From positions 930,001 to 994,000 of the forward strand of contig NC_010175.1 of NCBI RefSeq assembly GCF_000018865.1: a DNA stretch of 64,000 nt, written 5' to 3'. Both the position numbers and the translations under genes were made by a program. Below, in pieces: positions 43,450-64,000 of the stretch. Below the pieces are notes generated by a model that saw only the letters and a list, made by a program, of their open reading frames with translations, was not told the origin of the DNA and made no database searches. The first letter of the stretch is position 1. Each line of letters starts with the position of its first letter. The stretch is from Chloroflexus aurantiacus J-10-fl (GTDB taxonomy: Bacteria; Chloroflexota; Chloroflexia; Chloroflexales; Chloroflexaceae).

Positions 43450-43484
43450 GTATGCGTATATTTCCAGAGCACAGCGAGCAACGT

Positions 43485-45533: not shown

Positions 45534-45848
45534 TAACTAATGTCTGTTCGGGATGCGACTGTTTTGGATCAGGGGTTACGAATGCTATGCCACCAGATTC
45601 GATCCAACAAGCCTCAGAAAAAGGCCAAAAAAACTTGCTACAACACTATATTCTGACTACACATGCAGAATACTGATAGATACTGATCAGGTTATTGCCA
45701 CCCTTATCACGCCACAAGGGATTAGTCGCATCCTGTGGGTGATAGATGCGTAGATTCGTGCCAAAGGGGTTATTTTAGTCACTATCGCACTGTCTGGTGA
45801 TGCCAATGTTTGCCTGCCGCGTAATGTCGTTATTTACTTCGAGGAGAG
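45534..45848. other. Intergenic, no gene seen
   Basis: 315 bp. A 66-codon open frame at 45553 has no ribosome-binding site and no recognisable pattern. GAGGAG at 45841 serves the following gene. Confidence 0.5.
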
Positions 45849-47618: not shown

Positions 47619-48672
47619 GACTGACATTACCAGAACCTGTTTCAAAAACATTCACGACCAGTGATCTCATTCATTCCTGACAGACTCTATGAACGTGACG
47701 AGCACCCATAGCATCGCCGTGACCAGCAGGTTCAACAGCGTGATACGGTGCCCAGCAGAATCAACAGCGTGATACGCACTGGATCGTGAGCATGGCTGCC
47801 GCACCTGGCTTTTGGCCCTTTTTATGAGGGGCCTGCCCTGAGCGTGCCAGAAAGGTATGGTGAGGCAGCACCATGACCCACGAACACCATTCAGAAGACA
47901 CGTGATGCCCAGAAAGCAGGCCCCTGGCCTGGCTGCTTACCCTCGTTGCTGAAACACCTGATGATGATCATTGCCACCAATTGGCTGGCGTTTCGCCAGG
48001 AGTGGACGTTTCGCCGTGGCGCTGCTGGTTGGCGAGCCAGTCGCAATCGCCCGACACAACGCCACACAGGTGCAGCCAGTACCCGGCATGCACGACGCGG
48101 ACGGAACGGCGTGCTCTCGCCTGTTCAGTTGGTCTAGTTCTTCGCGAGACGCTAACGCGCTGCCCGACACGTGTTCCCTCTGTGATCGAGAGCGATGACG
48201 CGCAGCTTCCGCGTACCAGGCGAACCTTTCCCGGGAGCTGGCTGCACACACTACGCACGCCCGTGTTTCAGCGCGGTATCCACCGCGCACAGTAGTGTGC
48301 AGAAGACCTGGCTGCCGGCGCGGGTGACGGAGTACAACGCGGGCGATCCCACTGCGCTTCCTGCCGGCGTTCCTGGAACGGGCCGCACCGACGGCACCTG
48401 CTGGTTCCCGCAGCGGTCACGGCGTGATACCGTTCGGCAACGTGTTTTGCGGAGCATCTTGCTTCGTCCGCGCTTGCGTGTATCAGCCAATCCGCGAGTA
48501 ATAGAGTCGCTCTGTACAAGCCATCTCCCAATTTGCAGGGCAGTGGGTGCAGGTACTGGCTTGATTCGGGCGCCGCAGAGATGGACGCGAATATATCTTG
48601 TCAATCCGGCAAAAAGATGAACCGTAGCGTTGGGAGAGAACTGGTATGTGATACGTCCTGACACAAATCTGC
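47619..48672. other. Intergenic region with repeat remnants, no gene seen
   Basis: Just over 1 kb. It includes two near copies of a ~25-bp CAACAGCGTGATACG text (about 47730-47775), a truncated piece of the 25-27 kb hairpin subrepeat (about 47780) and copy 2 of the ~235-bp repeat. Open frames on both strands look random. Confidence 0.6.
48402..48640. repeat. ~235-bp dispersed direct repeat, copy 2
   Basis: Same orientation as 43128-43359. It differs by scattered substitutions and 7 extra bases near the left end. It ends 30 bp before the stop of the convergent STAND regulator gene. Confidence 0.85.
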
Positions 48673-51000
48673 TCAACGCTTCAGCCAGGTTTCGGCGCAT
48701 ACGAGCGCCTGTTGCGGCGTCCACGTGCGTGCAGTGCGCCAGAGGGCTGACCACTGTGCGGCGTCAATCCGCTCACGCGCACGTTGCCGGCGTTGGGCGA
48801 TCAGCGTCCGGTAGATGGGCGAGAGTGGCCCGCCGCGCTCACCCAGTCCCTCCTCGGCGGCCAGGCACTGCGCGCTTAGGGCAGCGTTATCCTGAGTGCT
48901 ATCGGCCAGTAGCCAGCCGGCCAGCGTGACCAGCCAGAAGCGTATCCGGCGCTCATGCTGGCGGACGTGAGGTAGCGCCAGCAGCAGTTCTCGCCGTGCA
49001 GTCGTCGTATCCCCGTGCACCAGAGCGATCTCGGCCCGGTCGGTGTGCAGGATGGCACGCGCCAGGTCCGGCCCGGCGTCGGGCAGCAAGGTAGCGGCTT
49101 CGTCGAACAGCGCCCGTGCTGTGACCAGGTCGCCGCGTGCCCAGGCTACCTCGCCCAGTTGCAGCGTGGGGAAACCGGGGTTGAGCAGATCAGGCCGCTG
49201 GTGCGCCAGCGCCTTGCTACGCTGCAACGCTGTTTCTGCCTGGCTAAACTCCCCACGTTCGATGTTTATACGCCCCACCAGGTTGAACAGCGCAGCCAGC
49301 CGTGCAGGTTGTTCCGCCTGTGCGAGAGCAATGGCCTGATGGGCAAACTCGTCGGCGCTGGTGAAATCGTAGCACTGCCACGACAGGTTTGCCGCTTTGA
49401 ACAGCAGGTTGATACGCTGGTCGGCATCCATCGTCCCTGGCAGCGCCAGGCTACGACGGATTAACGCCTGCCCCTCGCGCACATAGCCGTGTGTCTCCCA
49501 GAACCAGGCCAGCGCAGAGCACATCTGAAGCGCAGCCGCCGTTTCCCCCTGTTCAATCGAGCTGTGGAGCGCAGCCAGATAGTTGTCGTGATCCTGTTCG
49601 ATAGCTTCTGGTTGGCCCGCTGACTGTGTCAGTAAGTCGTGAAAGTAACGTGCATGTCGCTTCTGGGCCTGGATGCGCTCGGCCACAGTCATCTGGTTCC
49701 AGGCAAACTCGCGGATCATTTCCAGCAACCGCCACCGATCAGGCTCAGGTGTAACCAGACTGTGATCGGTTAGGGTCACCAGCCACGACTGTGTCAGGGC
49801 ACGACTGGACGCATTTGTCTCCCCTATACAGACCGCAGCCGCGGCGTCCAGGGTGAAGGAACCGACAAAAACGGCGAGATGCCTCAAGCATGCGCGGGAG
49901 TCTGGATCGATCAGGTCGTAGCTCCAGGCAATGGCGTTGGACAGTGTGCGCTGGCGGGGCGGCAGATCGCGCGCTGAGGTCTGAACCATTTCAACCCAGC
50001 CCGTCTGGCTGCGCAGTGCGGCGGCCAGATCCGCCACCGACATGCGGCGCAGGGTCGCCGCTGCCAGCTCGATGGCCAGTGGAATGCCCTGGAGCCGGTA
50101 CAGAATATCCGCCACGTCCCCAGCGTTGGCAGTGTCCACGACGAACGCTGGCCGGTGTTGGCGCGTGCGGGTCACAAACAACTGCACCGCCTCGAACGCC
50201 GGCATCTGGTCAGGCAGGGTTCCCGGTGGTGGGAGCGATAACGGTGGCGTAACGTATTCGTGCTCGCCGTAGATATGCAGCGGCACCCGGCTCGTCGCCA
50301 GAACCTTTAATCCTTTGCAGGCCCGTAGCAATTCACCTATGTCTGTCGCGACATCCACCACCTGCTCGCAGTTGTCCAGTACCAGGAGCACGCGCTTTGC
50401 CCCCAGGGCGGTGCGAAAGCGTTGAGACAGTGGTACATCGGCTAGAGGCAAAACCCCGACCTGACGGGCAATGGTTGCCAGCGCCAGCGCCGGATCGGTG
50501 ATTGACGCCAGGTCAACGAACCAGACGCCGTCGGGGAAATCGGGCAGCAGTACCTCTGCGGCCTGGACGCTGAGCCGTGTTTTACCGATGCCGGGTGGGC
50601 CGACAAGCGTGAGCAGGCGTACATCGCTGCGGCGCAGCAGAGTCGTGACTGCGGCAACATCATGCGTGCGGTTGACAAAAGAGGTGAGCGGCGCAGGCAG
50701 GTTGTGCGGCGTTCCCACCGACGGCGGAGAGAGTGGCAGCGTAGCCGGTGACAGATGCTCAACGGCAACAGCCCGACGCGCGGCGCGCAGAAATGCCGCA
50801 CGTTCATCATCGGGCACAGCCAGTGCTGTAGCGAGCAGCTCGGCTAGCTCGCGCGAGGGCCGCCGCTCATCCGCCTCGATCTTGCGGATGGTAGCGGCGC
50901 TGGCGCCGGTGCGCCGGCCCAGCTCGGCCTGGGTCAGGTCCAGCGCCCGTCGTCGCCGGCGCACCCAGGCCCCGAAGGAAGGTGTGGCGGTTTCGTCCAT
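48673..51000 (-). CDS. XRE-type HTH / STAND (NB-ARC-like) ATPase / TPR regulator
   Basis: 775 residues. N-terminal XRE helix-turn-helix (LTQAELGRRTGASAATIRKIE, about 22-42), an NTPase with P-loop GPPGIGKT (134-141) and Walker B RVLLVLDNCEQ, and C-terminal TPR-like helices (about 470-775). This is the layout of signal-sensing STAND regulators, where ligand binding drives ATP-dependent oligomerisation. It could be a transcription activator or, less likely, a defence sensor. The start at 51000 (MDETATP) places the DNA-binding domain at the very N-terminus; the frame runs to 51177 through the operator-like repeats. No good ribosome-binding site is seen. Confidence 0.9.
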   Translation of the reverse strand: MDETATPSFGAWVRRRRRALDLTQAELGRRTGASAATIRKIEADERRPSRELAELLATALAVPDDERAAFLRAARRAVAVEHLSPATLPLSPPSVGTPHNLPAPLTSFVNRTHDVAAVTTLLRRSDVRLLTLVGPPGIGKTRLSVQAAEVLLPDFPDGVWFVDLASITDPALALATIARQVGVLPLADVPLSQRFRTALGAKRVLLVLDNCEQVVDVATDIGELLRACKGLKVLATSRVPLHIYGEHEYVTPPLSLPPPGTLPDQMPAFEAVQLFVTRTRQHRPAFVVDTANAGDVADILYRLQGIPLAIELAAATLRRMSVADLAAALRSQTGWVEMVQTSARDLPPRQRTLSNAIAWSYDLIDPDSRACLRHLAVFVGSFTLDAAAAVCIGETNASSRALTQSWLVTLTDHSLVTPEPDRWRLLEMIREFAWNQMTVAERIQAQKRHARYFHDLLTQSAGQPEAIEQDHDNYLAALHSSIEQGETAAALQMCSALAWFWETHGYVREGQALIRRSLALPGTMDADQRINLLFKAANLSWQCYDFTSADEFAHQAIALAQAEQPARLAALFNLVGRINIERGEFSQAETALQRSKALAHQRPDLLNPGFPTLQLGEVAWARGDLVTARALFDEAATLLPDAGPDLARAILHTDRAEIALVHGDTTTARRELLLALPHVRQHERRIRFWLVTLAGWLLADSTQDNAALSAQCLAAEEGLGERGGPLSPIYRTLIAQRRQRARERIDAAQWSALWRTARTWTPQQALVCAETWLKR

Positions 51001-51005
51001 GGTTC

Positions 51006-51045
51006 TGTCACGCTTTGTCACGCTAATTGTAACGCTGTGCGTGAC
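51006..51045. promoter_or_regulatory. Operator-like direct repeats upstream of the STAND regulator
   Basis: TGTCACGCT at 51006 and 51016, TGTAACGCT at 51028, and the inverted half GTGCGTGAC at 51037. Spacings of 10 and 12 bp place the sites on one DNA face. Location 6-45 bp upstream of the XRE start suggests autoregulation. Confidence 0.5.
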
Positions 51046-51588
51046 CCTTTGCAAACAAGATTCGATCAACATGGACACAGATAGCCCTGGCTCACGGAGT
51101 AGATCGGAAGACGAAACATGGATGGTGTTTGTGAGACGCAGTGCTGTTGGCACAGGCTGTCTGGGGCGGCACACCACAGGTAGCTGACAATGGCCACCCT
51201 GTCCTCACCGGCAAGCTATGCCAGACGCTCCCGCAGAATGCTGTCGAAACGGTGCCTGGTCGTAAGTTGTTCGCTGTGTTGTAGCACTTCGCGAATGATG
51301 ACGCTCCCGGCAGTGCGGGCGACCAGTGCGACGTAGGCAGAGATGGGCGGGGCAATACCCTTTTTGTCTGCATGGCACGAACCTCGCCGGCTGCGTACAG
51401 CCATCCAGAACCGAGCTATCAGCGAGATTGGCAATGTAGCGGACTTCAACCACGGCGCCGATCCACACTCGCTTTGGGTAAGAGCCGCGAACAAGCCACC
51501 CTGGTGGTTGCTATCGAAACGCGCCGAACGAAACCGGCCTCAAGACCTTTGCCGGCCTGCTGGCCGATGCTCTGCAGAAGGAGACCAT
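51046..51588. other. Divergent intergenic region, no gene seen
   Basis: About 540 bp between the STAND regulator and the lipoprotein gene. Overlapping open frames around 51200-51490 on the minus strand could be a decayed gene end (HSEQLTTRHRFDSILRER), but I recognise no family. Confidence 0.4.
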
Positions 51589-52206
51589 ATGCGACGCGGA
51601 TTTGCGCTTCTATCGGTTTTGCTCACGGCTTTTGCCCTGATTCTCCTGGGTGCATGCGGGGGTGGCCAATCCGCAGCACAGACCGGACCGACACCCGCAG
51701 CCATCCCGCCGGAGCCGACGACTGCCGTCACCGTCGGGTCGGTCACGGATCAGCCGGCTGCGTCAGCAGCACTCGCCATCCCCTGTGCCGAGCTGGTGCC
51801 CGCCGACGAGTTGCAGCGCATGATCGGCGTGACGCCCGACAGTTTGATGGACACCGTCATGTCCGGCTGGACGGCTTGCAACTGGTTTTACACCCCGCCT
51901 GGCGCATCCCAGCAGGAAGCATTCACGGTGCAGGCTTACACCGGTGAGGAGACGCTGGTCAAATGGTGCATGGACACCAACCCCGCCAATCGCCTGGCGG
52001 GGGTAACCGTGAGTAGCCTGTCCGATTACGTGCAGGAAGGCTACACCTGGGTCATCCCAGAGGGCAAGCTGCGTGCAGTGCAGGCCCTGCAGGATGGCCG
52101 TTACATCTTCCTGCGCTTCCCTGCCGATACCCCGACCCTGAGCAGCGAGTCGCAGATCGCCGACTACCTGACCGTGCTGTTCCGCCGTTTGCAAGAGAAG
52201 GGGTGA
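51589..52206 (+). CDS. Lipoprotein of unknown function
   Basis: 205 residues. A lipoprotein signal peptide with lipobox LLGAC (Cys near residue 20), a Pro/Thr-rich linker, then a globular domain starting IPCAELVPADELQRMIG that resembles the DUF3558-type or other small extracytoplasmic lipoprotein domains only loosely. ATG behind AAGGAG. It overlaps or abuts the following metzincin gene, so the two are co-expressed at the cell surface. Confidence 0.8.
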   Translation: MRRGFALLSVLLTAFALILLGACGGGQSAAQTGPTPAAIPPEPTTAVTVGSVTDQPAASAALAIPCAELVPADELQRMIGVTPDSLMDTVMSGWTACNWFYTPPGASQQEAFTVQAYTGEETLVKWCMDTNPANRLAGVTVSSLSDYVQEGYTWVIPEGKLRAVQALQDGRYIFLRFPADTPTLSSESQIADYLTVLFRRLQEKG

Positions 52207-52211
52207 GAGCA

Positions 52212-55200
52212 ATGAAACCACGACGCTTTCCGCCTATCACGCTGCATTGGCTGGCGCTGATCGTCCTGCTGGCGGGGCTGCTGCCCGGTGCGGTGCAGGC
52301 CCAAGCCGGGGTCACCTCAACAATAGAGTTGCAGGACGTCCCAATAACCCTTGCCGACGACGTCACCAGCTTCTACTTGCGGGACCCGAAACTCTTCACA
52401 CACCGGGCACCTCCGCCCTGCGGCCCCAATGCCGCCGCGGTGTCGCCGAGCACGACATACGAGGAGTCCATCCGACGTATTCCTACACGTGGTGGACTAC
52501 CCCGCGATCTCTACCGCGAACCACAAGCCTGCAATACGCCTGGCATTCTATCAAACATCGTGGCCGATGACGATTACGTATACTGGACTGGTCCCAACGG
52601 ATTGATGCGTCTCTCAACTGATGCCAACCCTGGCGACACGCCGGAGCTGGTCAATGGTTTGCTGAGAGGCCGCGCCGAACTGGCAATTGACGACACGCAC
52701 ATATTTGTCATGACCTATGACAGCAACAACTACGCTACGCTGTATCGGGTGCCGAAATCGAGCGGCGTCGCCATCTTCATGACCGGTCCAGGTACCGGTG
52801 CCTCTAACCTGCAGACGAGCTATTCGTTTCTCGGCGGCGTCGTGCAGCGCTATTTTGTGTACTGGATCCAGGGCGGCAATCTGTGGCGCTTTGACGTGGA
52901 CACGCTGGCAACCACACTGCTCGCCGGCGGCGTCACCGGCTACTACGCCGAAGGCGGCCGCACGCTGTGTAGCGGATTGAGCTGTTTTTTCTTCGACACC
53001 GTGTTCATTGCTCAAGGCAACAAGGTAGTGACGTATAGCAACATCAGCGGAGCTACCAGCGCTCCCGTGTATTGCAGCAACAACCCATGCAGCCCCGATC
53101 CCAACCGTGTGGTGTTGTCGCCGATCACCGATGGCAACAACCTGTACTTCTTTGAAAGGCGTCGAACCGGTTGCGCTCCGTTCTGCGTTAACACGGATTT
53201 TCTGCTGCGCACCCCGCGCGGCGGAGGTCAGGTGGATGCGCTGTACTTCACCACCGGCGCCAGGCTCGCCAGCCGGCTGACCACCGACGGCACGCATCTG
53301 TACTGGCAGGAGGGCAACAATGTGCAACGACTGCCTAACAACGCCGCCGCGCTGCCCAGCATCAATCTGTTTGCCGTCGGACTGAAGGTAACCCAGGGCG
53401 TGCAGGACGACGCCTACAGCGTGCCGTTCATTCAGAATCGGCGCACGTTTGTGCGCTTTTTTGTACGCACACCAATGCCTGTTAGTCGACCTGTACTGGC
53501 CCTGCTCTACGGCTCGTGGGACGGCGGCAGTGGCGGGCCGCTGCTCCCCGTCAACCCTGCCGGGACCGAAATCCGCATCAAGGTTTTTCAGGATTACAAC
53601 AACATCAATGATAGCTTTCTGTTCGAGTTGCCATGGGAGTGGACGACCAAAAACAATCTGAGACTGACGGCCATCGTGAACCCGTACCAGTTCCCGCTGG
53701 AACCAAACTACAACGACAACATATCCACCGCCGGGCCGTTCAACTTCCTGCCTTCGCCCGCGCTTAAAGTGACGCTGGTCGGTCTGGGGTATCGACTCAA
53801 CAATCAGACTTTCTATCCCGACTATCAGCGTGACGTGATGGGCGCCGTCTCACTGGTGCGGCGAATGTTCCCCCTGGCCAACACAGTCGGTGGATCAGGT
53901 CTCGCCTGGGATTACTGGCACATCATGGATGAAGGACTCGGCTCGCGTGTGAACATGACCAATGTCGAGTGTAACGATTACATCTCGTGGGAAGACGGCA
54001 AGGTGGTGGATCGGCGCGACCTGTGTTCGACCCGCTACGCCAATCACCTGCTCGCCTATCTGCGCTCGGCATGGAAATACAGCGACCGCCTGTTTGTCTA
54101 CGGCCTGATTTCTACCAATGGACCAGGTGCTAAGGTGCGCGGCCAGGCCTTCCCGTGGGCGCGTGTCTCCAGCGGGGCGGCATGGGACGCCGATACTGCT
54201 GCGCACGAGATCGCGCACATGCTGGGCCGCCATCATCCCTTTAGAGGATCGGCGCTGGACACCAGGGTATGCGGCAACACTGAGAAAGACGGCCCCATGG
54301 ACTACAGCTATCCCTACGCAAACAGCCGCATCGGGGTTGGCTCGCTGGAAGGCTTCGATAGCGGTGATGGGTTCCTGGGGATCGCTCCCTCGATCAAGCC
54401 CAACGATCAGTGGTACGACATCATCGGCTACTGTAATCCATGGTGGATTAGCGACTACACCTATAAGGCGCTCTACAACTATATGATCGCCAACCCGCCG
54501 CAGCTCCAGGCGTTATCCAGCACGCCGCAGGTAGCAGGCGAATGGCTGTACATTGCGGGCAATCTCCGCGCCGATGGCAGCCAGGCCTCGATCTTGTTTG
54601 TGCGGCGGATGAGCAATCCGGCCAGTGTGCCGCCGCTCAATCCCGGCGACTATGCCATCCGACTCTACGATGGCAACGGTGTGCTGCTGGCCGACCATCC
54701 CTTCAGCGGGTTGTCGCAGGGCGAAGACGACGATCTTGGCATAGATCAGGCTGTGCCCTATGTGAACGGCACGCGCCAGGTGCGTATCGTGCGGCGGGCT
54801 AATGGGCAGACCCTGGCAACCTGGTCGCTCAGCGCCAACCCACCGACGGTCGGCAACGTTGCCCTCAGCGGTGCAACCAGCCCGGTCACCGGCACGGTCA
54901 CGCTCAACTGGACGGCGAACGATCCTGACGGCGACCCACTGACCTTCGACATTCTCTATCAGCGTGTGGGCGAGACGGAGTTCCGACCGGTGCGCCTTGG
55001 AGTAACTGGCAACAGCGCACAGATTGACACTGCGCTGTTCAGCGGCGGCGGGGCCGTACTGCGCGTGGTTGCATCTGATGGTGGCCACACGGCGCAAGCT
55101 GATACCACGCCGTTCACCGTGGCAAACAAGCCTCCGCGCGTAACCATACTCAATCCGGCAACCGGCCTGCGCATCCGGTATGGTCAGATCGTCAATTTCA

Positions 55201-55793
55201 GCGGCGAAGCCTTCGATCTACAGGATGGCTGGTTGGATGGCGCATCGCTTGTGTGGCGCAACCAGCGCGGGCAGGTTCTGGGCAGCGGGCCGTTACTTTC
55301 GGTAACAGATTTGCTGGTGGGCACGAACACGATCACGCTAACGGCCACGAATAGTCGAGGAATGACGGCCAGTGCCAGCGTGGTCGTGGTTGTGGACGAC
55401 GACCTGCAACTGCCGGGGCCATATCTCGCGGTAGGTCCGGATCAGGTAAACTGGCACCTCGCGCCGGGCACGACGGCGCTGCAATCGGCGGTGGTCAGTG
55501 TGATCAATGCCGGCAGCGGAAGTCTGACCTGGACGGCGAGTAGTGATCGTTCGTGGCTCAGTCTGAGCGCGGGCAGTGGTACCACACCGGTCACGCTCAC
55601 CCTGACTGCAAACCCCACCACATTCAATGAGGGCAATGTGTACACGGCCACTGTCACCATCACCGCAGACCCAGGCGGCGGCCAGCCGTTGCAGACAGTC
55701 GTGTTGCCCGTGCGCGTGTCTGTTGGTAATGTGGTTCGCGGACCCATATTGACGTTGGATCGACGGATCTTCCTGCCACTGGTCAGGCGGTGA
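52212..55793 (+). CDS. Secreted zinc-metzincin-like protein with Ig-like and BACON-like domains
   Basis: 1193 residues. Signal peptide (WLALIVLLAGLLPGAVQAQA), a beta-propeller-like N-terminal half (about 60-390, repeated DDDYVYWTG and GTHLYWQEG strands), a region with HEIAHMLGRHH (His665, Glu666, His669, His675), the metzincin zinc signature HExxHxxGxxH, followed by GPMDYSYPY as a possible Met-turn. Then come Ig/cadherin-like modules (LNWTANDPDGDPLTFDI) and a BACON-like domain (SDRSWLSLSAGSGTTPV). It ends RRIFLPLVRR. ATG at 52212 rather than GTG 52203 because of GGGGTGAG spacing and the signal peptide. Substrate unknown. Confidence 0.87.
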   Translation: MKPRRFPPITLHWLALIVLLAGLLPGAVQAQAGVTSTIELQDVPITLADDVTSFYLRDPKLFTHRAPPPCGPNAAAVSPSTTYEESIRRIPTRGGLPRDLYREPQACNTPGILSNIVADDDYVYWTGPNGLMRLSTDANPGDTPELVNGLLRGRAELAIDDTHIFVMTYDSNNYATLYRVPKSSGVAIFMTGPGTGASNLQTSYSFLGGVVQRYFVYWIQGGNLWRFDVDTLATTLLAGGVTGYYAEGGRTLCSGLSCFFFDTVFIAQGNKVVTYSNISGATSAPVYCSNNPCSPDPNRVVLSPITDGNNLYFFERRRTGCAPFCVNTDFLLRTPRGGGQVDALYFTTGARLASRLTTDGTHLYWQEGNNVQRLPNNAAALPSINLFAVGLKVTQGVQDDAYSVPFIQNRRTFVRFFVRTPMPVSRPVLALLYGSWDGGSGGPLLPVNPAGTEIRIKVFQDYNNINDSFLFELPWEWTTKNNLRLTAIVNPYQFPLEPNYNDNISTAGPFNFLPSPALKVTLVGLGYRLNNQTFYPDYQRDVMGAVSLVRRMFPLANTVGGSGLAWDYWHIMDEGLGSRVNMTNVECNDYISWEDGKVVDRRDLCSTRYANHLLAYLRSAWKYSDRLFVYGLISTNGPGAKVRGQAFPWARVSSGAAWDADTAAHEIAHMLGRHHPFRGSALDTRVCGNTEKDGPMDYSYPYANSRIGVGSLEGFDSGDGFLGIAPSIKPNDQWYDIIGYCNPWWISDYTYKALYNYMIANPPQLQALSSTPQVAGEWLYIAGNLRADGSQASILFVRRMSNPASVPPLNPGDYAIRLYDGNGVLLADHPFSGLSQGEDDDLGIDQAVPYVNGTRQVRIVRRANGQTLATWSLSANPPTVGNVALSGATSPVTGTVTLNWTANDPDGDPLTFDILYQRVGETEFRPVRLGVTGNSAQIDTALFSGGGAVLRVVASDGGHTAQADTTPFTVANKPPRVTILNPATGLRIRYGQIVNFSGEAFDLQDGWLDGASLVWRNQRGQVLGSGPLLSVTDLLVGTNTITLTATNSRGMTASASVVVVVDDDLQLPGPYLAVGPDQVNWHLAPGTTALQSAVVSVINAGSGSLTWTASSDRSWLSLSAGSGTTPVTLTLTANPTTFNEGNVYTATVTITADPGGGQPLQTVVLPVRVSVGNVVRGPILTLDRRIFLPLVRR

Positions 55794-55985
55794 TGAGTGA
55801 AGCACCTACCAATGCGAATGACCATCAACCTGACCATCCCTGTTCTACTCGCGGGATCATTGCTGTCACCTGCGCAGGCAGCAATCAGGGTGAAAGATGG
55901 TAGCCGTGCGTAAGGCGCATGATCCCTCGCCGGGAAGACGACGCTGGTAGTCGCAGCCGGCGTACAGAGCAATCGAGTCGACAGT

Positions 55986-56016
55986 CGAGCCAGGCACTTG
56001 CTAAGTGTCTGGCTCG
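55986..56016 (+). terminator. Hairpin terminator after the metzincin gene
   Basis: CGAGCCAGGCACTT-GCT-AAGTGTCTGGCTCG, 14-bp stem with one G-T pair, followed by GAGTTTAATA. Confidence 0.65.
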
Positions 56017-56136
56017 GAGTTTAATACGCCAGATGATCCGCCCATTCCGATGCAAACCGGGTTGTTGGGAAATGGACGAGGCGGTAGTGACTTTATATAC
56101 AACTCAACCGCTATTCCCTACCCTCATCGACTGGTG

Positions 56137-56142
56137 TATAAT
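56137..56142 (+). promoter_or_regulatory. -10 box of the methylase-HerA-NurA-helicase operon
   Basis: TATAAT, 48 bp before the first ATG; no good -35 box. Confidence 0.4.
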
Positions 56143-56189
56143 AGCAAGAAAACAGAGTCTTACTTTGCTGTGAGGATAACTTATTTTCA

Positions 56190-57080
56190 ATGCCATACTA
56201 CAGTCCTCTGCGATACCCCGGCTCAAAGCGCCATTTGACGTTATACGTTGAGAAGTCATTGACGATTAACGCTTTTCACCCAACGCTTTACATTGAGCCA
56301 TTTACAGGTGGGGCCAGCGTCGGATTACATTTACTCTTACGACAAAAAGTAGACAAAATTATCCTGATTGACCGCGATCCATGGATCGCCAGTTTCTGGC
56401 AAACGGTGTTCTGGGATACTCAATGGCTAGTTGACAAAGTTGAAAATGCTCCTATCACATTAGAAGAATGGGAGAGGATCAAACAAAGCGATCCATCCAC
56501 AACTCGCGAACAAGCCTGGACGTGTCTGTTTCTTAACCGAACCAGTTTTTCAGGCATCCTGCGTCAGGAAGTAGGACCACTGGGAGGAAAGACGCAAGCA
56601 TCGCCATACAAAATTGATTGTCGTTTTCCTCGCCAAACCTTGATCAAACGTATTCAACAGATCGCTGCCAGACGGGATAACGTTTATGCGGTTTGGAACC
56701 TTTCATGGGAAGAGGGATTGGAGGCTATTCGGTCAGAGCAACGCACAGGTAAACTGCCTGAGTCAGGTCTGTTTTTCTATCTCGATCCACCCTTTTTTGA
56801 AAAGGCAGATACACTTTATCGGTATTACTTTCAGGAAGAAGACCACAGTGCGTTAAGGGATACTCTTCTAAATATGACCGACAAATGGCTCTTAAGCTAC
56901 GATTCAGCGGAGCGAGTTGAGTATTTATACGGTGAAGCCATTGCCAGTCAGTCCAATGGAACCAAACGTTCTAATGTTGAATTCCTGTATAGCCTTTCGA
57001 TGCTACGGGAACGGAAACGCGGCAAAGAGGTTATTCTTTCCAACCTGGAAATACTGCCAGAACTTAATGGTCATTCGTAA
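56190..57080 (+). CDS. Dam-like DNA N6-adenine methyltransferase (D12 class)
   Basis: 296 residues. Transfers methyl from AdoMet to adenine N6. AdoMet-binding RYPGSKR (8-14) and YIEPFTGGASVG (34-45), catalytic DPPF (199-202) within FYLDPPFFEKADT; order and size fit the alpha/Dam (D12) class. NRTSFSGI in the middle is typical. The recognition sequence cannot be predicted. First gene of a five-gene operon, 11 bp before herA; there is no restriction endonuclease of classical type beside it. It may protect self DNA from the downstream nucleases. Base composition is lower in GC than the housekeeping genes. Confidence 0.93.
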   Translation: MPYYSPLRYPGSKRHLTLYVEKSLTINAFHPTLYIEPFTGGASVGLHLLLRQKVDKIILIDRDPWIASFWQTVFWDTQWLVDKVENAPITLEEWERIKQSDPSTTREQAWTCLFLNRTSFSGILRQEVGPLGGKTQASPYKIDCRFPRQTLIKRIQQIAARRDNVYAVWNLSWEEGLEAIRSEQRTGKLPESGLFFYLDPPFFEKADTLYRYYFQEEDHSALRDTLLNMTDKWLLSYDSAERVEYLYGEAIASQSNGTKRSNVEFLYSLSMLRERKRGKEVILSNLEILPELNGHS

Positions 57081-57091
57081 GGAGTACATCG

Positions 57092-59086
57092 ATGCAAAAT
57101 GTTAATTCTATTCTGAAAAAATCTCCTCTGGCAGAACTACTACAATCTGAAAATTTTGTCGGCTGGGTATATGCCATTGACTACGAATTTGCCTATGTGA
57201 TGACCAATGATCTGTGGAAGTATAAGGCACTCGGCATCCCTCACAACTGCTTCCTGGTAGCGGCTTCCTTCGATCCACAAAACCTCACTCAAGCGTCTGA
57301 AGATGAGATGGAAGTGATTCTTTTGCGCGTACTGGGTTCAGCTAAATTACCCCAAGATGATGACCTGGTACGCACAAAAATTGACCACTTTAAAGACCAG
57401 AAAAGCCCGATGGGCACTGATCGCGAACTGGATGACATCACGCGCAGCGAGATGCAGTTTAGCGGACTAAAATGCCGTGTGTTAGGCACATTTTTTGTAG
57501 ATCAGGATGAACTCTGGCTGGGAAGTGATTTAGAATCCTTTGCCACGGCCACGCGCCTGAATGTTTATCGCCCTCACGGAAAAGCACTGGAAACGATTGT
57601 TAATTATGTTGACCCAATTCGACGCAATGCTGCGCGGGAGATGGCCGAACAATTGGGTCTGAAAGGGGAAATCAAGCCATTTCAGATTGGTACAGTACGT
57701 TACACCTCCACCGACCGCTTGCACAGACGCGCTGTACGTGCGGAAAAAGTTCCAGTTTTCGTGCAACCGGCTGACTTTTTGGGACGCCGTACCGCCGTAT
57801 TGGGCATGACTCGCACCGGAAAATCTAACATGATCAAGCAGATGGTTTCAGTAGTTAAGCGTGTGGCTGATGCGAGTCAGGCGCGGATCGGACAGATCAT
57901 CTATGACATTAATGGCGAGTACGCCAATGCCAATCAGCAGGACAAGGGTGCCCTGGCCGATATTTACCCCAAAGATACCGTGCGCTACCGCATGTTAGAA
58001 GCAGAGGGTTTTCGCGAGCTGCGCACGAATTTTTATGAGCAGCTCAATGAAGGCTTTGGTATCATTCAGCGTGAACTGGAAGAGGCCAACCGCGTGACCA
58101 CCGACTACGTGCGGGCATTCGTTAACCTTTCTCTTGACGAACCTGACAAAGGAGAGTTCAGTGAATACAAGCGCTGGCAAGTGCGCGTTGCGGCCTACAA
58201 GACTTTGCTGTACGTGGCCGGGTTTGAGCCACCTGCCAATTTGAAAGTACGATTTGATGCCAGTAAGGAAATACGGACCAGTGTTAACAGTAAAGCAGGG
58301 GAGAATCTTCCTGATCCATCGCAAGGCTTGACCCTCGAACAGGCGAAGAAGTGGTTTCTGGCCTTGCGCCTTGCCAATCAGGAATCCTCGCTCAAAAGTT
58401 CTTCCGGCAACGGCAAAGACTGGGTTGACGACGCCTTGCAAACGCTGATTAACATGATTGCGCAACGTCAGGGAAATACCTACATCTCCGGCCACAGAAT
58501 CCTGACTGACGCCATCAAGTACCATTCTCCAAACCGCACTTCCGAAGTCGCCGATGAGATTTACGAACTGCTTAGAGATGGCAAGATCGTTATCCTTGAC
58601 CTTTCCGTCGGTGATGCACGTATTCGTGAGAAAGTAAGTACGCGGATTGCCCAGAAGATTTTCCAGAACTCGATGCAGATTTTCGTCGAAGGGAGAACTC
58701 CTCCCAACATTGTTGTTTACATCGAAGAAGCCCACAACCTGATCGGCAAGGGCATGGACCTGACCGAGACCTGGCCACGCCTGGCAAAAGAGGGGGCCAA
58801 ATATCGCATCAGTCTGGTCTACGCGACTCAGGAAGTTTCTTCCATGCACCCGAACATACTGGCAAACACAGAAAACTGGTTTATCACTCATTTAAACAAT
58901 GCCCGCGAGGTCAAAGAATTGTCTCAATTCTACGACTTTGAGGATTTTGGTGATTCGCTGATTCGGGCACAAGACGTAGGCTTTGCTCGCGTCAAAATGC
59001 TCTCCAGCCCCTTTGTCATTCCTGTTCAGATTGACAAATTCGACCCCGAAGCGGAACGTCAACGCATGGCTGCCAATCAGGAGTAA
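57092..59086 (+). CDS. herA: HerA/FtsK-superfamily DNA-translocating ATPase
   Basis: 664 residues. N-terminal beta-rich HAS-barrel-like region (about 15-200), P-loop GMTRTGKSN (238-246), YDINGEYAN, Walker B VVYIEEAHNL (around 543-551), and LVYATQEVSSMHPNILANT, the sensor/arginine region of HerA hexamers. HerA forms a hexameric ring that works with NurA in DNA end resection in archaea and in several bacterial defence systems. ATG behind AAGGAG. It is followed 4 bp later by the NurA gene, the classical pairing. Confidence 0.92.
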   Translation: MQNVNSILKKSPLAELLQSENFVGWVYAIDYEFAYVMTNDLWKYKALGIPHNCFLVAASFDPQNLTQASEDEMEVILLRVLGSAKLPQDDDLVRTKIDHFKDQKSPMGTDRELDDITRSEMQFSGLKCRVLGTFFVDQDELWLGSDLESFATATRLNVYRPHGKALETIVNYVDPIRRNAAREMAEQLGLKGEIKPFQIGTVRYTSTDRLHRRAVRAEKVPVFVQPADFLGRRTAVLGMTRTGKSNMIKQMVSVVKRVADASQARIGQIIYDINGEYANANQQDKGALADIYPKDTVRYRMLEAEGFRELRTNFYEQLNEGFGIIQRELEEANRVTTDYVRAFVNLSLDEPDKGEFSEYKRWQVRVAAYKTLLYVAGFEPPANLKVRFDASKEIRTSVNSKAGENLPDPSQGLTLEQAKKWFLALRLANQESSLKSSSGNGKDWVDDALQTLINMIAQRQGNTYISGHRILTDAIKYHSPNRTSEVADEIYELLRDGKIVILDLSVGDARIREKVSTRIAQKIFQNSMQIFVEGRTPPNIVVYIEEAHNLIGKGMDLTETWPRLAKEGAKYRISLVYATQEVSSMHPNILANTENWFITHLNNAREVKELSQFYDFEDFGDSLIRAQDVGFARVKMLSSPFVIPVQIDKFDPEAERQRMAANQE

Positions 59087-59090
59087 CCGT

Positions 59091-60482
59091 ATGCCCTATG
59101 AGAATGAGCGTGCCAGCAAAACTGCCCATGCAGACTTTATCAAAAATCCTGAAGTCCAGTCCTTCCTGAATTCTTGCGAATACCTGACGCAGCCAGATGA
59201 GGCCGAAGCTCAACACTTGATTTGTGATTTCAAACCACCACCACATGCTGCTCAGGCGAATCCCGTAGAACTTGTTCTGGCAATCGATGGCAGCAACTAT
59301 GAGGCTGCACTTGACGACGAAATACCCAGCACAAGACTAGGATACCTGAAAGTAGGCGCGATTTTGTTTAGCTTGAAAGATGTCTCCAAACTTCGGGAAG
59401 GTCGTTTTGTTGACCCATTCAAAGTGGCTGCTTTGCAAGATCAGAATGCATCTCTCACTTTTGTCCTGCCAAGTGCCAATGTACGCATCAAAGGACAGAA
59501 TAGTGTTCGGGATAGTTTCCGTGCTGCGCTGGATGAACAATTGCTATCAGAAAAGACGCGCTTTGACCCTAAAAACTTTCACACCAGTTTGCGAAGTACT
59601 CTTTTCTTTCTGGCCTCCCGCCGACCAGGAGATCTGGGCACTGGCACACCCCTCAAACTGAAATTGCACAAATGTCCCACGTGTGAGCGTGGCCCGGTTG
59701 AATTAGAAGATAAACTTGATCCTCAGATGTGTCCGTACTGCGGTGCCCCCGTCTACCCAAGCGATTGCTTGCGGATTTGGGAAGAGGTAACTGATTATCA
59801 ATCCAATCAGATAGCACTTTCGCGCCTGATGATAGTATTAGAGCATCTCATACCTATTCATTACATTCGGTTTATTGAACAAAAAGCGTTTTTGACGCTT
59901 ACCAAAATCGCTTTCTTCATAGACGGGCCACTAGCTATTTTTGGTGCATCCGCCTGGCTACACCGCAGCATTATGATTTACCTCCACGAGGTAAATACCA
60001 GACTGGCTAAATATCACCAACCTCCTCTGCTGATTATCGGTTTGCAAAAAAAAGGACAGATTGTAGACTATTTAGGGTTAATCAACCGATTTTTGCCCCC
60101 AGATCGCTTATTTGCAATAGACGATGAGTATCGTTACAAGTACATTTTAGCCAATCGCGAACCTTCAAGAGGTGGGTTTGGATTTGAGACGTATTATGGG
60201 CAAGACTTTATTTTCAAAACCAAACAAGGGCGCACGTTTGTCTTTGCCCTTCCCTATCCTTACCCATCGAAAGAAGAACCGGGTAGTGATTTTATCCGGG
60301 AAAAGACTGACTGGACACGTTACCCCAACTTACCAACGGCAGTACAACTGCTCGAACAATTGCAAACAGAGTTGTACCGTGATGCCGTAATTCCCATCGC
60401 CCTGGCTCATCGCTACACGGCCATCAGCACGCAACCCGGCGGGCGTGTGCTTGACTTGTTAACCCGGAGAGCACTATCGTGA
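59091..60482 (+). CDS. nurA: NurA-like nuclease with an inserted zinc ribbon
   Basis: 463 residues. NurA-domain hallmarks: LAIDGSNYEA (Asp66), FFIDGPLAIFG (Asp278), and LAHRYTAI near the C-terminus (His440), the RNase H-like metal site of a 5'-3' exo/endonuclease. An insertion carries C195, C198, C214 and C217 (KCPTCERG and MCPYCGAP), a zinc ribbon not usual in archaeal NurA. ATG at 59091 with AGGAG; the longer frame from 58983 lies inside herA. The stop overlaps the helicase start by 4 bp. It probably acts as the nuclease of the HerA ring. Confidence 0.88.
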   Translation: MPYENERASKTAHADFIKNPEVQSFLNSCEYLTQPDEAEAQHLICDFKPPPHAAQANPVELVLAIDGSNYEAALDDEIPSTRLGYLKVGAILFSLKDVSKLREGRFVDPFKVAALQDQNASLTFVLPSANVRIKGQNSVRDSFRAALDEQLLSEKTRFDPKNFHTSLRSTLFFLASRRPGDLGTGTPLKLKLHKCPTCERGPVELEDKLDPQMCPYCGAPVYPSDCLRIWEEVTDYQSNQIALSRLMIVLEHLIPIHYIRFIEQKAFLTLTKIAFFIDGPLAIFGASAWLHRSIMIYLHEVNTRLAKYHQPPLLIIGLQKKGQIVDYLGLINRFLPPDRLFAIDDEYRYKYILANREPSRGGFGFETYYGQDFIFKTKQGRTFVFALPYPYPSKEEPGSDFIREKTDWTRYPNLPTAVQLLEQLQTELYRDAVIPIALAHRYTAISTQPGGRVLDLLTRRALS

Positions 60483-63115
60483 GCACCTTTCACCAACATC
60501 TCACTGCTATTACCAGGCGACAACTTCCTCCCATCGAACGCCTGTGGGAGATGAGCGGTTTCACACCTAATGATGCCCAGCGTGAGGCTATCTTGCACGT
60601 AGATGGCCCTCTCTACCTGACTGCTGGTCCTGGTTCCGGCAAAACGCGTGTCCTTCTCTGGCGAACGCTCAACTTGATGGTTTACTATGGAGTGAAAGCC
60701 GAGGAGATTTTTCTTGCTACGTTCACCGAGAAGGCAGCCAGACAGTTAAGCGATGGTTTACGCTCCTATCTCGGTCTGGTCACCAACCTGACCGGCCAGC
60801 CTTATGACCTGGCTGGAATGTACATTGGCACAGTACATTCGCTCTGCCAGCGTATACTTACCGACCGACGACGTTTTTTTCTCGACCGCCAGCGGCCTCG
60901 TTCGCCTGCGCTTCTGGATGACCTGGGGCAGTATTTCCACCTTTACGAACGAGCCAACTGGGAGATCGTCACCCGCGCTGCTGGCCTTGATCCCAGTTCG
61001 GCTGCTGAAGTCGTTACCGGACACTTGAACACGCAACCTTCAGCTTCTCGTCATCGTGCAATCGAAGCACTACGCCCCTTCTTCAACCGCTTCTCGGAAG
61101 AATTGCTTGACCCCGCCGAGTTGCGCCCGCGCCTTTCCAGCCTGGTACGTGGCGAGTTTTCACCGCAAGATGTAGATTTGCTGCTGGCGCTCTACGAGGG
61201 TTATCTTCAAAGCCTGCGAGAGGCGGGAAGAACCGACTTTGCCCTGCTTCAGCGCGAGGCGTTCCAGGTTTTACAGGAGTTCCAGGGGGCCGGTGGTGTC
61301 TTTCGCCACGTGATTGTGGATGAATATCAGGATACCAACACTATCCAGGAACGCATCTTCTTTCGCTTGGCAGAAGGAACAGGTAACCTATGCGTAGTAG
61401 GAGACGACGACCAGGCACTTTACCGCTTTCGCGGCGCAACTGTGGAAAACTTTGTCCAGTTTCCAGCCCGCTGCCAGAAGTATCTGAACCAGACACCTCG
61501 TACCATTTCCCTGGAGATCAACTACCGCTCACGTTCCCACATTGTTGAAACCTATGGACGCTTTATTAATCACACCAATTGGCAAGACAGAGATGGAATG
61601 GTCTACCGCATCCCTAAAAATATTCGTGCCTATCGTAACGACCTGGCGCCAGCCGTAGTAGCCAGCACTCCCGCTGAGCCGGAGCAGGCTTGCCAGGAGA
61701 TTGCCCGTTTTGTCCGTCGCCTTATCGAGACAGGGAAAGTTCAAAACCCGAATCAGATCGCCTTTCTCTACCCCTCGCTCAAATCCGAACAGGCGAAGCG
61801 TATGATCGCTGCATTGAAAGCGGAAGGGCTGGACGTGTATGCTCCACGCGCTGGGCGTTTTCTGGAAGTGGACGAAGCCAGAGATGTACTGGGCATCTTC
61901 CTTGCCATCTTCGGACGCCCTACAATCGAAGGGAGGGGACATGATCTGCGAACTTTTGAGGTTTACTTAACGGCCCTTCAAACCCGCGCTGATGAATTAC
62001 AGCAGACCGACCCGTTACTCAAGCAGTTCATTCAGAACCGCCGCGACGAGATTCAGCGCGCCCTCAGCGATTATGCCGCCCTGCAAGCCGTGCTGACCCG
62101 CAACCGCTGGCTTCCCGATCAGCTCTACGATCCGGCAAGCATGAAACGCGCCCTGGCTGACGCACCAGGACTTTCAGAGACCGGACACCGCCTGGTGTCT
62201 AGCGCATACCTCGACCGCCTCGTGCTCCTGCGCGCCAGCGAGGGACGACCACTTTCGCTGGAATATGTTATTCGCCGTGCAACCTCACTCGACTGGAACC
62301 TGCTCGACCTGTTCTACCAGTTGATGGGCTTTGAGCACTTCAAAGCCATGTTCGACCGTGCCGAACGACAAGGCGACGAAGGCGCAGTAGCCAATCTGGG
62401 ACTGCTAACGCAATACCTGGCACGCTTCGTGCAGGAACGTGTCAACATTCTGACCGCTGCCATTCTCAGTGAACACAAATTTTCGGGAATGTTCTTCGGT
62501 TCCTTCATCTTCGCTCTCTACCGCCTGGAAGAGGGCGAGCGCGAAGACGAGGAGAATCCCTTCCCACGCGGACGCATTCCCTTTCTGACCATCCACCAGG
62601 CCAAAGGATTGGAGTTCCCGGTCGTAGTGCTGGGCAATCTCGATAAACGCGACCACGGTGCTCCTCTCATCGAACGTCTGGTACGCCCCTTATTGTCACG
62701 CCCGGCCGGCGAACCACTTGATCGAATGACCGCCTTTGATATTGCCCGCATGTTCTACGTTGCCCTGTCGCGGGCGCAGAATTTGCTCATCCTGGCTCAT
62801 TTTTCCGGACGCGGGCAGCGCCAGGACGAAGCGTTCAAACCTATCTTGAACGGTAATCTACCTCGCCTGGCTGATTTCGACCTGAACAGTTTGCCCAACG
62901 CTGTCGCAACCGATGAGACGTTGCCCAAAGTGTACTCTTTCACCGCCGATTACCTGCTCTATCAGACATGCCCGCGGCAGTACATGATTTTCCGTAAGTT
63001 CGGTTTCGTTCCTTCTCGTTCGCAAACGATGTTCTTCGGCTCGCTGGTGCATCGCACGATAGAGGATTTGCACCACGAGATCATTCGCCGCCGCAAACTA
63101 ACAGATGGCAGATAG
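60479..63115 (+). CDS. UvrD/Rep-family (SF1A) helicase ending in a partial PD-(D/E)XK nuclease domain
   Basis: 878 residues. Helicase motifs in order: GPGSGKT (50-56), FTEKAA, GTVHSLCQ, VDEYQDT (280-286), VGDDDQALYRFRGA, EINYRS, LTIHQAKGLEFP and FYVALSRAQNLL. The last ~50 residues (DYLLYQTCPRQYMIF ... FGSLVHRTIEDLHHEII) are the first part of a RecB/AddB/Cas4-type nuclease domain, including its first iron-sulfur cysteine, C831. The remainder is encoded by the next gene. GTG start overlapping the NurA stop. It likely unwinds DNA for coupled degradation. Confidence 0.93.
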   Translation: MSTFHQHLTAITRRQLPPIERLWEMSGFTPNDAQREAILHVDGPLYLTAGPGSGKTRVLLWRTLNLMVYYGVKAEEIFLATFTEKAARQLSDGLRSYLGLVTNLTGQPYDLAGMYIGTVHSLCQRILTDRRRFFLDRQRPRSPALLDDLGQYFHLYERANWEIVTRAAGLDPSSAAEVVTGHLNTQPSASRHRAIEALRPFFNRFSEELLDPAELRPRLSSLVRGEFSPQDVDLLLALYEGYLQSLREAGRTDFALLQREAFQVLQEFQGAGGVFRHVIVDEYQDTNTIQERIFFRLAEGTGNLCVVGDDDQALYRFRGATVENFVQFPARCQKYLNQTPRTISLEINYRSRSHIVETYGRFINHTNWQDRDGMVYRIPKNIRAYRNDLAPAVVASTPAEPEQACQEIARFVRRLIETGKVQNPNQIAFLYPSLKSEQAKRMIAALKAEGLDVYAPRAGRFLEVDEARDVLGIFLAIFGRPTIEGRGHDLRTFEVYLTALQTRADELQQTDPLLKQFIQNRRDEIQRALSDYAALQAVLTRNRWLPDQLYDPASMKRALADAPGLSETGHRLVSSAYLDRLVLLRASEGRPLSLEYVIRRATSLDWNLLDLFYQLMGFEHFKAMFDRAERQGDEGAVANLGLLTQYLARFVQERVNILTAAILSEHKFSGMFFGSFIFALYRLEEGEREDEENPFPRGRIPFLTIHQAKGLEFPVVVLGNLDKRDHGAPLIERLVRPLLSRPAGEPLDRMTAFDIARMFYVALSRAQNLLILAHFSGRGQRQDEAFKPILNGNLPRLADFDLNSLPNAVATDETLPKVYSFTADYLLYQTCPRQYMIFRKFGFVPSRSQTMFFGSLVHRTIEDLHHEIIRRRKLTDGR

Positions 63116-63144
63116 CAAATGAGCGCTGTTGAAGAAGGAAAGCT

Positions 63145-63963
63145 ATGACCGAAGACCCTTTTAACGATATTGAAGATTTTATTCGGCAGCGTTTTGAGGA
63201 GAACTTCAAGCAACTTTGCCTGGAAAGCGGACATACGCTGACGGCAGACGTGAAAAAGACCGCTCTGGATCAGGTGTTACTTTACTGGCGCAGTATGCGT
63301 AAGATTGCTGAACGCATCACCGATACTGAGGTGCGTCTGAGCCTACCCGGTCAGCGATCACCACAGGGACGCGAGTACACTATCGAAGGCGTGGTAGACA
63401 TCCTGCGCGCCGATGATCAGACCGTGATGTACGACATCAAGACGCATGACGCCGATTATGTGCGTGCCAACCTGGAACTTTACAAGCAGCAGTTGAACGT
63501 CTATGCTCATATCTGGCAGGAGCTGCGCGGTGAAGCGCTCGACGCCATGGCGATCATCGCTACCGCCTTTCCCCACGCCATCAAGGAGGCACTTGAGAAC
63601 CCCGAACCGATGGCCCTGGAAACTGCCCTTCAAGATTGGGAGCCTCTCATTCCCATCGAGTACGACCCGGCATATAAGGACCGCACTGTGCTTGCGTTTG
63701 GCGAGACGGTAGACAGAATCGAAAATGGCGAGTTCTCTCCGCCGCCCCTCGAACGGTTGCAAGAGAACATCCCTGGTATACGGACGCATGAACGCTTCGG
63801 TACGCGGGTATGCCGCAACTGTGACGCCCGTTTTTCGTGCAATTCGTACCGCCAATACGTTCGTGGCACATCGCGTCTCGCTGAACGCCGCATGAGCTAT
63901 TTCACTGACGACCAACCAGACCAGGAAATCTGGCGTACTGCCGGATTGGATGACCTTCCTTAA
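63145..63963 (+). CDS. PD-(D/E)XK nuclease, C-terminal part with iron-sulfur cysteines (Cas4/AddB-like)
   Basis: 272 residues. Nuclease core: EGVVDIL (Asp85), MYDIKTHD (Asp97, Lys99), QQLNVYAHIW; C-terminal CRNCDARFSC gives C223, C226 and C232. This is the CxxCx5C half of the four-cysteine iron-sulfur signature of Cas4/AddB nucleases, whose first cysteine is in the upstream helicase (C831). ATG with AAGGAAAG upstream, 29 bp after the helicase stop, in a different frame. Either the nuclease has been split in two polypeptides that reassemble, or a nonsense change plus frameshift broke a fused helicase-nuclease. Confidence 0.87.
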   Translation: MTEDPFNDIEDFIRQRFEENFKQLCLESGHTLTADVKKTALDQVLLYWRSMRKIAERITDTEVRLSLPGQRSPQGREYTIEGVVDILRADDQTVMYDIKTHDADYVRANLELYKQQLNVYAHIWQELRGEALDAMAIIATAFPHAIKEALENPEPMALETALQDWEPLIPIEYDPAYKDRTVLAFGETVDRIENGEFSPPPLERLQENIPGIRTHERFGTRVCRNCDARFSCNSYRQYVRGTSRLAERRMSYFTDDQPDQEIWRTAGLDDLP

Positions 63964-64000
63964 TTGGCGAATGAAGCAGGTTTAAAAATGCTCATCTGTT

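What the first reader, a model, noticed from the sequence alone, without database searches (positions are those of the whole stretch)
56190..63963. Five-gene operon: adenine methylase, HerA, NurA, UvrD helicase, Cas4/AddB-like nuclease
Seen: five co-directional genes with gaps of 11, 4, -4 and 29 bp, in AT-richer DNA, next to other accessory genes. Known: HerA-NurA resects DNA; UvrD plus PD-(D/E)XK is the RecB/AddAB plan; solo Dam-like methylases mark self DNA; HerA ATPases occur in several bacterial defence systems. Inference: one operon that marks self DNA and combines two helicase/translocase-nuclease pairs to degrade unmarked DNA. I know no named system with exactly these five parts.
Basis: partly seen in the sequence, partly recalled or inferred. 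Interest (0 to 1): 0.86.

Follow-up and report, generated by a model that had tools for sequence, protein, structure and literature searches.

The report
Methylase-guarded HerA-NurA operon, split helicase-nuclease
A mobile five-gene operon in a green photosynthetic bacterium appears to mark the cell's own DNA with a methyl group and shred unmarked DNA with two motor-nuclease machines, one of which has had its cutting domain split between two genes.

Summary
The five genes exist exactly as described (56190-63963). Three corrections follow.
(1) HerA and NurA are closer to TdpA/TdpB, an antiphage HerA-NurA-like complex, than to repair HerA-NurA. NurA model versus TdpB: Z 19.5, against at most 13.5 for other NurAs. 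HerA versus TdpA: E 3e-23. Across 28 HerA-NurA loci in bacteria, an archaeal plasmid and temperate phages, 25 carry a nearby DNA methyltransferase, of at least two unrelated classes. The modifier is swapped while the nuclease stays.
(2) Genes 4 and 5 are not a helicase plus a Cas4. They are one RecB/AddB-type helicase-nuclease cut in two inside its nuclease domain. The H motif and first cysteine are in gene 4; the D, DxK, QxxxY motifs and three cysteines are in gene 5. The split is conserved in one Chloroflexota clade; relatives are fused.
(3) In the relatives that can be read, Type III Mod-Res genes follow; this genome lost or never had them.
The operon is absent from seven congeners, lies in an 18.6-kb insertion, and is under purifying selection. 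Function is untested. Verdict: new variant of a known kind.

The parts
56190..57080 (+). Gene 1: D12-class (Dam-like) N6-adenine DNA methyltransferase, 296 aa; motif I EPFTGG, motif IV DPPF at residue 199. Proposed self-marking enzyme.
   Evidence: Pfam MethyltransfD12 8.2e-13; PADLOC PD-Lambda-5_B 4e-73 and MTase_II 3e-59; DPPF shared with closest relatives, DPPY in others
57092..59086 (+). Gene 2: HerA/TdpA-like hexameric ATPase translocase, 664 aa; Walker A GMTRTGKSN from residue 238, Walker B VVYIEEAHN from 541.
   Evidence: Pfam DUF87 7.4e-11; best solved-structure match TdpA 8wet 3.2e-23, ahead of canonical HerA 4d2i 2e-7; motifs conserved in the relatives aligned
59091..60482 (+). Gene 3: NurA/TdpB-like RNase-H-fold nuclease, 463 aa; invariant D66 (DGS) and D278 (DGPL), plus invariant zinc-ribbon-like cysteines C195/C198/C214/C217.
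   Evidence: Pfam NurA 1.5e-29; AlphaFold model pLDDT 79, best structural match TdpB 8wfd_G Z 19.5; invariant columns
60479..63115 (+). Gene 4: SF1 UvrD/PcrA/AddA-type helicase, 878 aa, carrying at its C-terminus the first part of a RecB/AddB-type nuclease domain: first cysteine (CPRQY, residue 831) and the H motif (LVHRTIEDLH, 856-865).
   Evidence: Pfam UvrD 2.5e-52 and PDDEXK_1 profile 9-52 at residues 827-867; alignment to fused homologues
62957..63115 (+). C-terminal part of gene 4 that belongs to the split nuclease domain (from residue 827).
63145..63963 (+). Gene 5: second part of the nuclease domain, 272 aa: D85 (GVVDI), D97-I-K99, Q116-xxx-Y120, C223-x2-C226-x5-C232. Own ribosome-binding site (AAGGA) before its ATG.
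   Evidence: Pfam PDDEXK_1 profile 59-247; invariant columns in 18 sequences; model matches AddAB, AdnA, RecE and Cas4
45534..64000 (.). The 18.6-kb accessory insertion that holds the operon; its right end lies about 180 bases beyond the window (equivalent to position 64177), so the operon is nearly flush with that end.
   Evidence: Right-flank homology of all six congener loci compared starts about 174-206 bases past the window end; in congener G008 (L142) the subtilase and the thioesterase are neighbours

Best explanation
A mobile restriction-like defence operon. The D12 methyltransferase marks adenines of a specific site in the host chromosome. HerA (hexameric ring) and NurA (dimer) form a TdpAB-like translocase-nuclease that threads and degrades double-stranded DNA lacking the mark. 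Genes 4 and 5 assemble into one RecB/AddA-like 3'-5' helicase-nuclease whose active site, and probably a 4Fe-4S cluster (one cysteine from gene 4, three from gene 5), form only when both polypeptides join. It would unwind and cut the ends exposed by HerA-NurA or by breakage. Shown here: gene content, homology, conserved motifs, the conserved split, selection, mobility, and association of HerA-NurA with methyltransferases. Inferred: that methylation protects, that unmarked DNA is the target, that the complexes assemble, and the order of action.
For: Domains intact and catalytic motifs present. HerA closest to TdpA and NurA closest to TdpB. 25 of 28 HerA-NurA loci carry a DNA methyltransferase close by, with D12 and N6_N4 families interchanged, against about 3% expected by chance in this genome with about 15 such genes in 5.26 Mb. 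Carriage by temperate Vibrio phages between integrase and excisionase, by other proviral contigs and by plasmids. Relatives sit beside Type III Mod-Res, Tiamat-like and DruE-like genes. The window island also holds a GmrSD_N protein. Absent from seven congeners, with an empty site in one. pN/pS 0.12-0.22 in all five genes. Split point and cysteine/catalytic pattern conserved in seven loci; the split helicases form one clade at 100/100 support.
Against: No phage or plasmid assay exists for this operon, and the methylated motif is unknown. HerA-NurA also has a proposed repair role in archaea and Deinococcus, although PMC12977600 questions it for T. kodakarensis. UvrD-nuclease more often travels with a Type III-like Mod that is missing here, so its functional tie to the D12 methylase is not proven. 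The inter-protein Fe-S cluster is inferred from cysteine spacing only, and the cysteine tail is unstructured in the isolated model. Three HerA-NurA loci (L012, L021, L131) have no recognisable methyltransferase.
Confidence: 0.68

Rival explanations
1. Two adjacent defence systems: a complete MTase-HerA-NurA restriction system, followed by the remnant of a separate UvrD-nuclease / Type III Mod-Res system that lost Mod and Res in this genome.
For: MTase-HerA-NurA stands alone in many taxa and phages; UvrD-nuclease with a Mod stands alone elsewhere; Mod-Res follow gene 5 in L016, L017 and L018 and, as a contig-edge fragment, L019, but not here. No close Type III Mod in the rest of this genome.
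Against: Genes 4-5 are under purifying selection like genes 1-3, NurA and UvrD overlap by 4 nt as in the relatives, and the HerA-NurA-UvrD-nuclease order recurs in the other Chloroflexota loci. The split UvrD clade was only found with HerA-NurA where the context can be read (one locus, L038, is cut by its contig end).
Confidence: 0.22
2. A DNA repair or recombination operon: HerA-NurA end resection plus an AddAB-like helicase-nuclease, with an incidental methylase.
For: HerA-NurA and RecBCD/AddAB families have repair roles (established knowledge; introduction of PMC12977600).
Against: Patchy, accessory distribution (4 of 158 class genomes for NurA, none of seven congeners), phage and plasmid carriage, near-constant linkage to swapped methyltransferases, and closer similarity to TdpAB than to repair HerA-NurA.
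Confidence: 0.07
3. Gene 5 is a frameshifted or decayed remnant: the helicase-nuclease gene is broken in this genome.
For: The nuclease domain is interrupted by a stop and 29 nt, and relatives outside this clade are fused.
Against: The same split occurs in six other loci, always with a start codon, usually with a 4- or 8-nt overlap, and in different relative frames. Gene 5 has its own RBS, all catalytic residues and pN/pS 0.195. The split clade has 100/100 support.
Confidence: 0.03

Closest known systems
TdpABC (phosphorothioation-based antiphage system of thermophiles; TdpA hexamer, TdpB nuclease; PDB 8wet, 8wfd)
   Same: HerA is closest to TdpA by sequence and NurA closest to TdpB by fold; a DNA-modification gene sits beside the translocase-nuclease; likely modification-sensitive degradation (Tdp mechanism from own knowledge).
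   Different: Modification enzyme is a D12 adenine methyltransferase, not the phosphorothioation enzyme TdpC; an extra split helicase-nuclease is attached; only about 14% identity to TdpB.
HerA-NurA resection complex (Deinococcus 7f6d; Thermococcus 9x1l-n; Sulfolobus 2ygk)
   Same: Same two protein families, and presumably the same hexamer-dimer architecture.
   Different: Weaker match (Z 9.4-13.5 against 19.5), linked to methyltransferases, accessory and mobile; a zinc-ribbon-like cysteine insert is invariant in this NurA family.
AddAB / AdnAB / RecBCD helicase-nucleases
   Same: UvrD-type helicase with an AddB/RecB-type nuclease motif order (H, D, DxK, QxxxY) and an AddB/Cas4-like four-cysteine pattern.
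   Different: Helicase plus nuclease domain is cut inside the nuclease domain into two genes; a single helicase; accessory distribution.
HerA-Sir2 and HerA-DUF4297 defence systems
   Same: A HerA ATPase ring paired with an effector in antiphage operons.
   Different: The effector is NurA, and a methylase is present.
Type III restriction-modification (Mod-Res)
   Same: Mod and Res follow the operon in Chloroflexota relatives; fused UvrD-nucleases elsewhere neighbour a Mod-like methyltransferase.
   Different: The window operon has neither Mod nor Res; its methylase is D12 class.
PD-Lambda-5 (PMC9519451)
   Same: The methylase is most similar in PADLOC to its MTase component.
   Different: PD-Lambda-5 is described there as a compact prophage RM+Abi system; the window's other four genes gave no match to its models among the rows shown.

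Membership tests
TdpABC | HerA-like translocase of the TdpA type | tested here: met
   phmmer best hit TdpA 3.2e-23, next relatives 2.7e-14 and weaker
TdpABC | TdpB-type NurA-like nuclease | tested here: met
   structural match Z 19.5, 321 residues aligned, rmsd 4.4; next family Z 13.5
TdpABC | Phosphorothioation enzyme TdpC in the operon | tested here: not met
   No such gene among the five; the modification gene is a D12 methyltransferase
Restriction-modification (self-marking plus nuclease) | DNA methyltransferase genetically linked to a DNA-degrading effector | tested here: met
   Operon here, and 25 of 28 HerA-NurA loci
Restriction-modification (self-marking plus nuclease) | Methylation protects DNA from the effector | not testable with these tools
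   needs biochemistry or genetics
RecB/AddA-type helicase-nuclease | SF1 helicase motifs plus PD-(D/E)XK nuclease with H, D, DxK and QxxxY motifs | tested here: met
   Met only across the two polypeptides together
Cas4 | Complete Cas4 nuclease domain in one protein | tested here: not met
   Gene 5 lacks the N-terminal cysteine and H-motif helix, which are in gene 4; weak PADLOC Cas4 hit 8e-6
AddB/Cas4-type iron-sulfur nuclease | Four cysteines binding a 4Fe-4S cluster | tested here: inconclusive
   Pattern C + CxxCx5C is conserved in every aligned sequence whose ends are complete, across genes 4 and 5; the cluster itself is not testable
Type III RM | Mod and Res genes in the locus | tested here: not met
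   Absent downstream in this genome; present in relatives
Known PADLOC (2023) system | A PADLOC model for each component | tested here: not met
   No PADLOC model matches the NurA gene; a later database release could differ

The most novel reading that the evidence does not exclude
HerA-NurA (TdpAB-like) is a general modification-sensing nuclease whose partner modifier is freely swapped (phosphorothioation, D12 adenine methylation, N4/N6 methylation). In this lineage it works together with a helicase-nuclease whose active site and 4Fe-4S cluster are assembled across two separately translated proteins, which would keep the nuclease off until both subunits meet.
Probability: 0.4. Interest if true: 0.8.

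Novelty: new variant of a known kind. Interest (0 to 1): 0.66.

Why it matters
HerA-NurA has long been filed under DNA end resection. A near-constant link between this bacterial and archaeal HerA-NurA family and swapped DNA modification enzymes, together with its closeness to TdpAB, would move a widespread family into modification-guarded immunity and make it testable with a three-gene cassette (methylase, HerA, NurA) from a Vibrio phage or this operon. The split helicase-nuclease is an unusual natural case of a nuclease active site, and probably an iron-sulfur cluster, shared between two polypeptides; it offers a natural split-nuclease design and a control point against self-damage.

Tried and rejected
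Recent frameshift in gene 4/5: rejected, because the split is conserved in one clade with differing relative frames. Programmed frameshifting: unlikely for the same reason. Known named system: PADLOC, NCBIfam and the paper searches found no HerA-NurA-methylase or five-gene system; TdpAB itself is in the PDB but in no paper of the held library, so its mechanism is cited from own knowledge. Type III Mod elsewhere in this genome: only a weak hit; the search for the Res endonuclease domain was uninformative because no control genome rang. Rfam: nothing in the island. Sigma-70 promoter scan: nothing found. Sequence search of the rejoined nuclease domain and of the NurA profile against PDB sequences gave nothing useful; structure comparison succeeded. 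E. coli genomes: no match to the phage HerA-NurA DNA.
Full report
Observation. The window is G000:C1:930001-994000 of a single 5,258,541-bp contig, which matches the size of Chloroflexus aurantiacus J-10-fl (own knowledge). Downstream of gene 5 come a thioesterase, a response regulator, a HIT-family protein and prfB, so the operon ends at 63963.

Genes 4 and 5 are one enzyme in two pieces. Pfam PDDEXK_1 matches residues 827-867 of gene 4 (profile 9-52) and residues 8-233 of gene 5 (profile 59-247). Aligned to 15 fused homologues, mostly 950-1000 aa long, gene 4 ends just after the H-motif helix, with the first cysteine (CPRQY) and LVHRTIEDLH. Gene 5 supplies D85, D97-I-K99, Q116-xxx-Y120 and C223-x2-C226-x5-C232. 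These gene 5 residues are invariant among 18 sequences. In AddB and Cas4 this cysteine pattern binds a 4Fe-4S cluster (established knowledge), so here the cluster would bridge two proteins; that step is inference. An AlphaFold model of gene 5 is confident up to about residue 200 and matches AddAB, AdnA, RecE and Cas4 nucleases. Its cysteine tail is disordered alone (pLDDT under 50), as expected if it needs gene 4, but also compatible with ordinary tail disorder.

The split is ancient, not damage. The same two-gene arrangement is found in L015, L016, L017, L018 (the same contig as L037), L019 and L038, mostly with 4- or 8-nt overlaps and in differing relative frames. Gene 5 here has its own ribosome-binding site. 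Six split helicases form one clade (100/100) apart from 18 fused ones. pN/pS against L019 is 0.12-0.22 for all five genes.

HerA and NurA. The closest solved relative of HerA by sequence is TdpA (3.2e-23; canonical HerA 4d2i 2.2e-7). The NurA model (pLDDT 79) matches TdpB with Z 19.5 and 18.4, other NurAs at 9.4-13.5. TdpAB is, from own knowledge, the effector of a phosphorothioation-guarded antiphage system; the held library has no paper on it. This NurA family has an invariant CxxC...CxxC insert.

The methylase is part of the module. Counting by hand over 28 HerA-NurA loci fetched by NurA or HerA similarity, and therefore without regard to methylases, 25 have a DNA methyltransferase within about 5 kb. 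D12: window, L015-L017, L019, L020, L022-L026, L057, L060, L129, L148, L149, L150. N6_N4 family: L014, L058, L059, L130, L132. SPPY-type, recognised by motif only: L062, L063. L018 has only the Type III Mod downstream. The exceptions are L012, L021 and L131. Some of these loci are cut by contig ends, so the count is approximate. This genome has about six D12 and nine N6_N4 genes in 5.26 Mb, so chance adjacency within 5 kb on either side is about 3% per locus. The loci span Chloroflexota, Proteobacteria, Bacteroidota, Chlorobi, Cyanobacteria, Deferribacterota and a haloarchaeal plasmid. In Vibrio temperate phages the order is integrase, HerA, NurA, methylase, excisionase.

Context and mobility. 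Of 158 class genomes, four have this NurA at E <= 0.001 and none of the seven congeners does. In congener G008 the genes that flank the island here, a subtilase (43452-45533) and the thioesterase, are neighbours, so about 18.6 kb (45.5-64.2 kb in window numbering) is inserted here or lost there. The island also carries a GmrSD_N/DUF262 protein (46092-47618). In relatives the operon is followed by Type III Mod and Res (L016, L017, L018; a contig-edge Mod fragment in L019), then a Tiamat-like gene in L016; a DruE-like helicase lies upstream in L019. Fused UvrD-nucleases without HerA-NurA sit beside a Mod-like methyltransferase in many proviral contigs.

Mechanism. Best reading: methylation of host sites, TdpAB-like HerA-NurA degrading unmarked double-stranded DNA, and a two-subunit RecB/AddA-like helicase-nuclease adding end processing. 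Homology, linkage, split, selection and mobility are shown; protection by methylation, target choice and complex assembly are inferred. The main rival is that genes 4-5 belong to a second system whose Mod-Res part is missing here.

Novelty. No named system with these parts was found in PADLOC 2023, NCBIfam or the paper library. The kind (modification-guarded HerA-NurA-like nuclease) is known from TdpABC, so this is filed as a new variant: methylation in place of phosphorothioation, plus a split helicase-nuclease.

Noticed in passing
window 46092-47618: GmrSD_N/DUF262 protein lacking the start of the domain (profile 59-194 of 199), PADLOC HEC-05, at the left end of the same 18.6-kb insertion; may be a truncated Type IV restriction-like gene.
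   Followed up: partly
L064-L078 (IMG/VR proviral contigs), e.g. L069 5734-13143: Recurrent cassette of fused UvrD-PD-(D/E)XK protein, Type III-like Mod and, in loci read in detail such as L069, a ResIII helicase with a TnsA-like nuclease domain; no PADLOC system match beyond single components. Looks like an unnamed restriction-like system.
   Followed up: partly
L129 1309-5750 (PQ189371) and twin PQ189353: Temperate Vibrio cyclitrophicus phages carry HerA-NurA-methylase between integrase and excisionase: a compact three-gene cassette suitable for testing.
   Followed up: partly
L132 5141-8939 (NC_013940): Deferribacter plasmid HerA gene interrupted by an IS200/IS605 tnpA-tnpB element.
   Followed up: no
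L016: Record titled Diapherotrites archaeon carries the five-gene operon at 69-83% identity to the window; more likely a mis-binned contig than an archaeal copy.
   Followed up: no
L012 5309-11089: Same-order genome with HerA-NurA beside a ThiF/JAB protein and a 1171-aa UvrD-like helicase, without a methylase: a possible different partner set.
   Followed up: no
window 48673-51177: HTH-ATPase-TPR (NB-ARC/MalT-like) protein in the same insertion, a STAND-type architecture.
   Followed up: no
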